A stretch of 47,126 bases of DNA from Spirogloea muscicola (lineage: Eukaryota > Streptophyta > Zygnematophyceae > Spirogloeales > Spirogloeaceae), in contig WELB01000078.1 of the NCBI GenBank assembly GCA_009602725.1, forward strand, positions 388,786-435,911, read 5' to 3'. The notes beneath the pieces were generated by a model. That model did no database searches and was not told where the DNA came from. It was given only the letters and a program-made list of their open reading frames with translations. The position numbers were made by a program, and so were the translations under genes. This document shows, piece by piece, positions 33,001 to 36,000 of the stretch. Position 1 is the first letter of the stretch, and each line of letters starts with the position of its first letter.

Positions 33001-36000
33001 TGACGATAGACAGTGAGCTCCCGTACAATCACTGTATAGAGAAGGTAGCAGTAGCAGAAGGCACACCTCCATTCTCCTCGTTTTGTTCTGCACAAGTACT
33101 GTTTTCAGCTCTTGCAATTGGGCGTTAAGGGAGGCAACTTCTTGCTGCTCTGCATTTGAAAGCCCACCAGTCAACTCCGTCCCAACCTCATCTCTCTTGC
33201 TTGACAGAAGTTCCTTGTACTCACGCACAAGCTTTTGCGCATCAGAGATGGCCTTCTCCTGCATTTGCAGGCCACCAAACAGCTTGTGAGACTGGCAAAT
33301 CTACAGCCCGAGCAATAGTTCAATATGTTCCAACACAACAATCAATTATTGCTCATCAGACTTATTCCCCACTACTGCTCTTACAGCAATGAGCCTGCTG
33401 TGCTAGTTGTCATGAGAGTCAGAATGACAGGCAGTGTACCTTCTGAGCAATGAATGTCTTGTTTGTAGACTCCTCAAGCCTGATCGCTTTCATGTCATTT
33501 CTGACCTGTTCAGCTTCTTGCTGTTTCTCAACCTTCTCTGCTTCCACTTTCTGGATCTCACTAAGAATGTGAGTGATTTTCTGATCAACCTGTGTGTCAT
33601 AGTTAAGGTGACACCTGGGGTACGGTGCAAAAGCAGCAAATTACCTAAGACAAAATGGACAGTTGCTCGTGTTGACCTCTGCAGAGACTGTGTGAATTGG
33701 AGAGACTGCATCTTCTATTCTTAGAGAGGATATCTTGAAGTTTTGATCTGGTAGTAGAAAGTTGCAGTTCAATCTTGCCGGCTTTCAGAGTATTTTCACG
33801 GATGACCTTGACTAATTTCAATTTAGACCGCCAATGGTCATGGAAGCCTCCTGTCATTGCACCCTTTTTGGTGACTTGATCACCTGCATCAGAAAAGCAT
33901 GCTATCATCCTCTATGAACAGCTTGTGCAATATCCACTTCCTGCAGGTCTTTAAGAAATGGTGCACATGTGCAGGGGGCTAGGCTTGCACATGCAGCAAT
34001 CACAATGAGAGCAGCTCAAGCAAGTGACAACCTTCCATTGTTATACAGTCCAGATCTGAAGTTTTTGACACACTAGTTGCTGTGTCAATGTCTCGACAGA
34101 TCAAGGTCCTTGCAAAGACCTGGATCACACTCAAGTCAAGCATCACACTTAAAAACAAGTTTTAGGTTCTGATAACATTCTCTGTCAAGCAAGCTGAAGT
34201 AGAGCATCCTCAATGGCAAGGCTGGAACAGCTTTGGTAATAAGGCTAAAGGCAGTCTATTGTGAGAAGAAGCACTCTACATACATGAGCAAAAGCGCTCT
34301 CATAGTCCTTGGCATACTTGAGTCGCCTTAAAAGGGGTAAGACATTGTTGTTGTCACTTGGATATTTCACTGATGGGGTTCTCATCCTGTTTAAGGGCAG
34401 AAATGTAAGCCTTCCTGCTTTCTGTGCAAGCATATACTTTATTATTCTGTGACTGATCTCGTCTGTGTCCACCACAATATGGAACAGGCTGCAGAAAGCA
34501 AAGTAAATGTTAGCTACTAAAATGCAAATCTCACCACAACTTGGAGCAACTTCCAATAACTTTTGCAAATGCCAGTGAATAAGCTGTAGCACATCAGTCT
34601 TGCAGGACGTAACTGAAGCTGAAGGTGTAACACGTACAGAACAAGAGCAACTGCAACTCAATGCTTGTCTACGAAATCACGCGGTCTCACCTATTACCAG
34701 CAGTAACCTCGACAGGAATGTTAAATTTATCTTCACAGTCAAGAAGCTCGATGAGAGGCCCATGTACGCCCATAATATGGTGGTCTTTGCAGATTCGTTT
34801 CAAGGCTATCAAGCCCTTTCTAATGTCCTGTTGGCACTTATGTAGAAAGAGTGAGTTGTGCAACAATGCGAGATTAAGAGAGAGGTAAAGTAGCCGCCTT
34901 TTATGTGCGCTTGCACACCCTACTCGTTGTATTCAGTCCAGCTAGTGATAAGCAAAAGAGTAGCACGCACCCCTGGTGCAGCTATATCCATTGCTTTATT
35001 TGCTCGTGCGACCTCGTCATTTGCTTCTTCAAGCACCTTGATCAAGTCAGATTCTTCCTTCCACAGCTGTCTGCAACCAAGTGGTCTCAAGGTATAAGCT
35101 TTGCTATGGCTTGCCGCTCATATAAGAGCAATCGCTGATTGTAGCAGTTGGTGTCAAGAACTTACTTTCTTTGCTCCTGAAGACTATTGCGTTCAATCCT
35201 CAGCTCCTGAAAAGACTGTGTACGTCTGGCAACTTCCTGCTCAAGCGACTGCAGCACGGCAGTCTGACTGCCTGCTATTCTTGAGGAAGTCTTTAGGGCC
35301 TCACTGAGCTGGTCAAAGTTGGACTGCAGTCCATGTATCTGATAAGATGCAACACTTCTAGTTACATAATTATCTGCATCTCAGACACAATCTAAGCCCA
35401 GTATCGATGTCACTACGATCAAGCCTACAGTCACACTCCTGTTTGTAAAACAACCACAGCATGTTCCACATTCAGAGTAGATCAACTTGTTGTCCATGCT
35501 GCTGAGCATGACCGATGAGCATGACTAAAGCAATATGCAGCTGCAGCCAAGAAAGGACGTTCAAATTGCAGACGTTTGAAATGTACCTGCGCTTGTTCTG
35601 CTTGGACCAAGCCCTCAAGCTCGCTGATCTCCTTCTCTAGGGCTTTATCACGTTCCTTCTTGGACGAGAATTGTGAAGCACGCCCTTCCTTTCGATAGTG
35701 ATGGCTAAGTTGCCGCTCAATATCTGAAATCCTGGAGAATAAAAACATGATCACTTGAGCCTGCCTAATTGCAGGTGATGAAGGCCAGACTCAGGACAGC
35801 ACTTTGCTGATCACCAACGCAGAAGCTAGTACCTCAACTACATTGGTCTATACGTACATAGTCAGAGCTCTTTCCTCTTCCACTCGTGCTGCTTCATACT
35901 GCGAGCACACTCCGGTGAGCTCGCTAGTCGTAGACTGGATCTCTTGACGCAAGCTGTCCAGCTCTGTTTGCATCTCTGCCTGTGACAGTATGATAGTATC

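What the first reader, a model, noticed from the sequence alone, without database searches (positions are those of the whole stretch)
33592..33733. AT-AC minor-spliceosome intron in SMC3
Seen: the only junction that keeps the SMC3 frame here uses ATATCCTC at the 5' end and AC at the 3' end, with CACCTTAAC as branch site nine bases upstream. Known: these match U12-type AT-AC introns. It restores LQEVDQK, the family sequence. No in-phase GT or GC donor was found. AT-AC introns are rare, and many algae have lost the minor spliceosome, so this also informs lineage.
Basis: partly seen in the sequence, partly recalled or inferred. Interest (0 to 1): 0.8.

Follow-up and report, generated by a model that had tools for sequence, protein, structure and literature searches.

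The report
Rare-class AT-AC intron in algal SMC3
A cohesin gene of a green alga close to land plants carries a real intron of the rare minor-spliceosome class, kept in all three gene copies found, while the U6atac splicing RNA genes found have changed bases exactly where they should recognise such introns.

Summary
SMC3 lies on the minus strand (38777-30030, 28 exons). Intron 18 (33733-33592) is ATATCCTCT...CACCTTAACTATGACACAC. Of the junctions enumerated, only AT-AC there loses no coding sequence and has a U12-type donor in register. Two further SMC3 copies in the genome keep AT-AC, the branch site and the frame. U11, U12, U6atac and CENATAC genes were found; U4atac was not. Plastid genes and threefold copies suggest a streptophyte alga, probably Spirogloea (inferred). 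Minor introns are already reported in Chara and Klebsormidium, so the intron is a new member of a known kind.

The surprise lies beside it. The three U6atac genes found read UGAGCCGAGAGAAGG where the Rfam consensus is UGAAAGGAGAGAAGG. Canonical pairing to donor positions +6 and +7 is lost for all six donors examined, although the RNA's 5' half and an upstream promoter element are conserved. Either a canonical U6atac is missing from the held sequence, or 5' splice-site recognition has been rewired. Intron 18 is also unusually conserved along its length. No RNA reads could be checked.

The parts
30030..38777 (-). SMC3 gene (cohesin subunit), 28 coding exons, start codon to stop codon, 1231 aa
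   Evidence: hand-built gene model; SMC3 chain 7w1m_B E 2.5e-269 over chain residues 1-1213; SMC_N and SMC_hinge domains
33734..33883 (-). exon 18 (150 nt), ends ..CTTCAAG; the intron falls in phase 1
33592..33733 (-). intron 18, AT-AC, U12-type, 142 nt, phase 1
   Evidence: kept in two further SMC3 copies
33725..33733 (-). 5' splice site ATATCCTCT (8/9 to RTATCCTTT)
   Evidence: ATATCCTTT and ATATCCCTT in the other two copies
33602..33610 (-). branch site CACCTTAAC, branch A 11 nt before the intron end; identical in 3 of 3 copies
33592..33593 (-). 3' splice site AC (kept as AC in 3 of 3 copies; followed by AG)
33440..33591 (-). exon 19 (152 nt), begins AGGTTGATCAG
   Evidence: first 9 and last 41 nt identical in 3 of 3 copies

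Best explanation
Positions 33733-33592 are a genuine U12-type (minor-spliceosome) AT-AC intron of the cohesin gene SMC3 in a streptophyte green alga, older than the split of its three SMC3 copies. U11 pairs with the donor, U12 pairs with CACCTTAAC, U6atac with U5 takes over the donor, helped by CENATAC, and splicing to the AC 11 nt after the branch A restores the reading frame; retention brings a stop codon. Shown here: gene model, signals, their conservation in three gene copies, and genes for U11, U12, U6atac and CENATAC. Inferred: that splicing occurs as stated, and by these steps. A second minor intron (27) probably lies in the same gene. The U6atac genes found have lost canonical pairing to donor positions +6 and +7, so the hand-over of the donor from U11 to U6atac probably differs from that known in mammalian cells.
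For: SMC3 frame kept across the junction. Donor 8/9, branch 8/9, branch A 11 nt from the end; 2 of 27 introns have such donors; 0 of 20,000 mononucleotide shuffles reach both scores. Two other SMC3 copies (C111, C187) keep ATATCC, CACCTTAAC, AC and the frame; one has ATATCCTTTT. The nearest in-frame GT/GC-AG choice removes 51 coding bases in each of the three copies. U12 3 loci at 80-81 bits, U11 4 loci at 46-60 bits, U6atac 3 loci at 83-86 bits, all over the Rfam cut-offs; none of the 14 control genomes goes over a cut-off. Two CENATAC/CCDC84 loci, E 2.5e-26 and 6.3e-26; CENATAC depletion affected 92% of A-type and 24% of G-type minor introns in human cells (PMC8280824, passages).
Against: No transcript evidence. 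U4atac not found by the Rfam model or by two patterns built on pairing with U6atac. The alga's U6atac pairs with none of the six donors at +6 or +7 in the canonical register. A strict genome pattern for consensus minor introns gave only 2 hits (0 in the reversed control), neither clearly an intron. The intron that splits the DNA-binding domain of E2F is ordinary GT-AG here. A branch score of 8/9 also occurs in intron 16, whose donor is ordinary.
Confidence: 0.93

Rival explanations
1. The junction is an ordinary major-spliceosome GT-AG or GC-AG intron, and the AT-AC reading is a coincidence.
For: In-frame stop-free GT/GC-AG pairs do exist: 84 GT and 55 GC for the window copy.
Against: The nearest (a GC donor) removes 51 coding bases in each of the three copies; the nearest GT one listed changes 72 coding bases in two copies and 75 in the third. 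Donor and branch both match U12 consensus, and the branch is identical in the three copies.
Confidence: 0.03
2. It is an AT-AC or AT-AG intron removed by the major spliceosome, or spliced to the AG two bases after the AC.
For: AG follows AC in all three copies; major-class AT-AC introns exist (PMC8280824, passages).
Against: The donor begins ATATCC in the three copies and the branch is CACCTTAAC, both U12-type; there is no evident pyrimidine tract. Splicing from ATATCC to the AG shifts the frame and gives a stop at once (CTT CAA GGT TGA, read).
Confidence: 0.04
3. The intron is a relic: U12-type signals persist, but the minor spliceosome of this alga is broken (no U4atac, U6atac unable to pair) and the transcript is left unspliced or is rescued otherwise.
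For: U4atac not found; U6atac altered at donor-pairing bases in 3 of 3 genes found.
Against: U11, U12 and U6atac keep their gene bodies and an upstream element in three loci each while other flanking bases diverge; the three SMC3 copies keep the family's frame without loss only if the intron is removed; two CENATAC loci remain.
Confidence: 0.04

Closest known systems
U12-type AT-AC introns (minor introns) of plants and animals
   Same: Donor RTATCCTTT, branch UCCUUAACU, no pyrimidine tract, AT-AC ends (as given in PMC2846911, passages); short branch-to-end distance (recalled).
   Different: Donor of the window copy departs at +8; the alga's U6atac does not match the donor at +6 and +7.
Minor introns of Chara braunii (166) and Klebsormidium nitens (110), Larue and Roy 2023, PMC10639083 (passages)
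   Same: Streptophyte algae with minor introns.
   Different: This genome is probably of Zygnematophyceae (inferred), which the passages seen do not name; three of the four minor snRNA families were found with the Rfam models that paper also used.
Minor intron of human SMC3 (PMC4667643, passages and Table 3)
   Same: The same gene holds a minor intron in human.
   Different: The passages do not give the intron's position or ends, so whether human shares position 18 or 27 is untested.
Cyanophora paradoxa minor splicing, called possibly transformed in PMC10639083 (passages)
   Same: An alga with minor introns and an odd minor-snRNA set.
   Different: There only U11 gave significant hits; here U11, U12 and U6atac are found and U6atac itself is altered.

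Membership tests
U12-type (minor) intron | donor close to RTATCCTTT | tested here: met
   8/9 in the window copy; ATATCCTTT and ATATCCCTT in the other two
U12-type (minor) intron | branch site close to UCCUUAACU | tested here: met
   ACCTTAACT, 8/9; CACCTTAACT identical in 3 of 3 copies
U12-type (minor) intron | short distance from branch A to 3' end, no pyrimidine tract | tested here: met
   11 nt..CACCTTAACTATGACACAC
U12-type (minor) intron | removal restores the reading frame | tested here: met
   3 of 3 SMC3 copies
U12-type (minor) intron | host has minor snRNAs U11, U12, U6atac | tested here: met
U12-type (minor) intron | host has U4atac | tested here: inconclusive
   none found; withheld stretches, gaps and a limited candidate list prevent calling it absent
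U12-type (minor) intron | donor pairs with host U11 | tested here: met
   best duplexes -4.4 to -7.1 kcal/mol over six donors, weakest for the window's intron 18
U12-type (minor) intron | donor +4 to +9 pairs with host U6atac nt 16 to 11 | tested here: not met
   mismatch at +6 and +7 in 6 of 6 donors; this concerns the host's U6atac, not the intron's signals
U12-type (minor) intron | splicing seen in RNA and dependent on U12 | not testable with these tools
   no reads available
U6atac snRNA (Rfam RF00619) | covariance score above gathering cut-off (33 bits), full length | tested here: met
   83.2-85.5 bits, model positions 1-126, three loci
U6atac snRNA (Rfam RF00619) | donor-pairing block AAAGGA (nt 11-16 of the consensus) | tested here: not met
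   AGCCGA in 3 of 3 loci; none of 11 places found with up to 2 mismatches has AAG at nt 12-14

The most novel reading that the evidence does not exclude
The minor spliceosome of this alga has rewired 5' splice-site recognition. Its only U6atac carries GCC in place of AAG at nt 12-14, so the catalytic RNA no longer pairs with donor positions +6 and +7, while U11 and the introns keep the ancestral CCUU code. U6atac would then hold the donor by the outer pairs (+4, +5, +8, +9), by a shifted register (roughly donor +6 to +10 with GAGAG at nt 15-19), or by protein. The SMC3 intron 18 donor drifts at +7 and +8 among the three copies, as relaxed pairing would allow.
Probability: 0.4. Interest if true: 0.8.

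Novelty: new member of a known kind. Interest (0 to 1): 0.52.

Why it matters
[quoted passage not shown] The larger point is U6atac. In transfected cultured cells a P120 donor changed from CC to GG at +5/+6 regained splicing when U6atac carried CC14/15, and best when U11 was changed too (PMC4980772, passages). Here nature has changed one of those two bases (G14), and both bases before them, without changing CC5/6 in the donors seen. If confirmed, it makes testable how much donor pairing the catalytic snRNA needs, in a natural case beside engineered mutants. It also gives an entry to why intron 18 is conserved over its full length.

Tried and rejected
Considered and dropped: (a) a known RNA such as a snoRNA inside intron 18, to explain its high conservation: no Rfam match at E up to 5; folding no better than shuffles, z 0.21. 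(c) U4atac: Rfam none. First pattern 2 hits against 7 in the reversed control; checked late, hit L014 has no U-rich Sm-like site within the 150 nt after the match, hit L015 has an AATTTG but no ATCCCA element in the locus and no Rfam match at E up to 10; both taken as chance. Second pattern none, control none. (d) Other minor introns by strict pattern: 2 hits against 0 in control, neither convincing. (e) E2F/DP as genes with a conserved minor intron (recalled): the E2F intron is GT-AG, donor GTCAGTTTG; DP donors were not resolved. (f) U6atac in public collections as a yardstick: 0 in genome contigs, 3 matches in viral contigs without an Rfam hit, so the constancy of AAAGG rests on the Rfam consensus alone. 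(g) Intron position in human or plant SMC3: not available in the papers looked at.

Full report
What is there. The gene on the minus strand at 38777-30030 is SMC3. I built the model exon by exon from the sequence: 28 exons, a 1231-residue protein, an E-value of 2.5e-269 to SMC3 chain 7w1m_B (recalled to be human) over chain residues 1-1213, and SMC_N and hinge domains. Of 27 introns, 26 are GT-AG. Intron 18, at 33733-33592, is AT-AC: CTTCAAG | ATATCCTCTCTAAG ... GTGTCACCTTAACTATGACACAC | AGGTTGATCAG.

Is it more than chance? Against the published consensus (donor RTATCCTTT, branch UCCUUAACU; PMC2846911, passages seen), intron 18 scores 8/9 and 8/9 with the branch A 11 nt from the end. Intron 27 scores 9/9 and 8/9 with the branch A 19 nt from the end. 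The best of the other 25 donors is 6/9. The branch score alone is weaker evidence: intron 16, with a donor of 4/9, also reaches 8/9. Of 20,000 mononucleotide shuffles, none of intron 18 reached both of its scores, and 1 of intron 27 reached a donor of 9 and a branch of at least 7. The branch motif is ten, not nine, bases before the end.

Independent copies. The last genome search found SMC3 in three places: the window (C78), C111 and C187. I fetched the 3' part of the other two and aligned introns 16-27, that is 12 of the 27. Intron 18 starts ATATCCTCT, ATATCCTTT and ATATCCCTT. CACCTTAACTATGACA is the same in the three, the end is AC in the three, and all three give LQEVDQK when the intron is removed this way. 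Intron 27 starts GTATCCTTT in the three, and its last 41 nt are identical. These are U12-type signals that have outlasted divergence, in two introns of one gene.

An unexplained feature. Intron 18 is conserved along its whole length. It has 11 of 140 gap-free columns variable, against 522 of 2122 in the other 11 introns compared (Fisher p about 9e-7; smallest margin against a single intron, intron 19, p 0.013). Pairwise identity is 94-95%, within the range of the exons, 92-99%. I found no known RNA family and no unusual folding, and no open frame shared by the copies (by eye). A regulated, slow intron is one guess: minor introns have been proposed to be switches controlled by U6atac level (PMC3728624, abstract).

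The machinery. In the genome (153 Mb, 471 contigs) Rfam models find U12 at 3 loci, U11 at 4 and U6atac at 3, all over the curated cut-offs; a fourth U6atac hit at 21 bits is below it. The control genomes ring below the cut-offs only (1 of 14 for U11 and 8 of 14 for U6atac, both at E up to 1; 0 of 14 for U12). Aligned with their flanks, the three U12 and the three U6atac loci, and three of the four U11 loci, keep an ATCCCA-type upstream element; the three U12 loci also keep TATATAA, and the same three U11 loci CCATAA, while other flanking bases diverge (that this resembles the plant snRNA upstream element is recalled). The fourth U11 locus (L007) lacks it and may be a pseudogene. CENATAC (CCDC84) is present at two loci; its depletion affected 92% of A-type minor introns in human cells (PMC8280824, passages). 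U4atac was not found. Stretches of this assembly are withheld or are gaps, so absence is not shown.

The odd U6atac. The three U6atac loci read GUGUUCGUUGAGCCGAGAGAAGGUUAGCA, where the Rfam consensus is GUGUUGUaUGAAAGGAGAGAAGGUUAGCA, with the AAAGG block in capitals. A search for TGANNNGAGAGAAGGTTAGCA with up to 2 mismatches returned 11 places (reversed control 2). The only three exact ones are these loci, all with GCC; none of the 11 has AAG. One of the others, C52:239176-239196, has one mismatch and was not looked at further. In suppressor experiments donor CC5/6 pairs with U6atac GG14/15 (PMC4980772, passages). By that numbering the alga keeps G15 and A16 but has C14, C13 and G12. I tested donor +4 to +9 against nt 16 to 11 for six donors (introns 18 and 27 in three copies). 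+4, +5 and +9 pair in 6 of 6; +6 and +7 are mismatched in 6 of 6; +8 is Watson-Crick in 1 and wobble in 5. With the Rfam sequence 4 of 6 donors pair at all six positions. The best free duplex with nt 8-20 is -2.1 to -7.8 kcal/mol for the alga, in a register shifted to about nt 14-19 and strongest for the window's intron 18, against -6.6 to -9.0 for the Rfam sequence. The alga's U11 still pairs with the donors, at -4.4 to -7.1 (all). The three loci lie on different contigs with diverged flanks and an invariant 5' half, which argues against an assembly error or a dead copy.

Which organism? The plastid contig carries rps14, psaB and psaA side by side. PsaA scores 1650 bits for the top chain and 1485 for 7dr0 (that the chains 8htu and 6l35 near the top are moss, and 7dr0 Cyanophora, is recalled). 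SMC3, U12, U6atac and a DP-type gene (my reading of an E2F_TDP match) each occur three times. Genome triplication is reported for Spirogloea muscicola (PMC7994812, passages; Zygnematophyceae). I infer Spirogloea or a near relative, about 0.7.

Relation to print. Minor introns were said to be lost in green algae (PMC2846911, abstract and passages) and then reported in Chara braunii (166) and Klebsormidium nitens (110) (PMC10639083, passages). Human SMC3 is a minor-intron gene (PMC4667643, passages and table), with no position given in what I saw. A library search for at least two of Spirogloea, minor spliceosome, U12-type, U6atac and minor intron listed 25 of 348 papers; none of the 25 contains Spirogloea. 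A search for U12-type with Klebsormidium returned only PMC10639083. Within those searches I found no report of this intron or of the U6atac change; the 323 unlisted papers and papers outside the library were not seen.

Verdict. It becomes more interesting because of a likely second minor intron in the gene, its unusual conservation and, above all, the altered U6atac of its host.

Noticed in passing
L008 1501-1619, L009 1501-1620, L010 1501-1620 (minus strand): Three U6atac genes share GCC for AAG at nt 12-14, within the block that pairs with the 5' splice site.
   Followed up: partly
window 30603-30218: Intron 27 of SMC3 looks like a second U12-type intron (GTATCCTTT, GTCCTTGAC, AG) in the same gene, its signals conserved in three copies.
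   Followed up: yes
window about 30429-30353: A run of CCCTAAA telomere-type repeats sits inside intron 27 of the window copy; the other two SMC3 copies lack it (65 bases of the window copy have no counterpart).
   Followed up: partly
window 33592-33733: Intron 18 varies at 11 of 140 columns among three copies, far less than the 11 other introns compared; cause unknown.
   Followed up: partly
L009 about 1400-1480; window 23993-24541 and 44342-45100: The stretch next to the 3' end of one U6atac gene resembles, by eye, the end of a repeated ORF that also occurs in the window; the window ORF at 23993-24541 has no Pfam match, so a mobile-element origin is a guess.
   Followed up: no
window 4851-5369: An ORF with an FAD/NAD(P)-binding Rossmann start (Thi4, NAD_binding_8 and similar matches), probably an early exon of a flavoprotein gene.
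   Followed up: no
G000:C439:1913-2051 (L007): A fourth U11-like locus at 45.8 bits without the upstream element of the other three, possibly a pseudogene.
   Followed up: no
G000:C52:239176-239196: A place one mismatch away from the U6atac core pattern, with TCG at nt 12-14; could be a further U6atac-like sequence or chance (the reversed control gave 2 hits).
   Followed up: no
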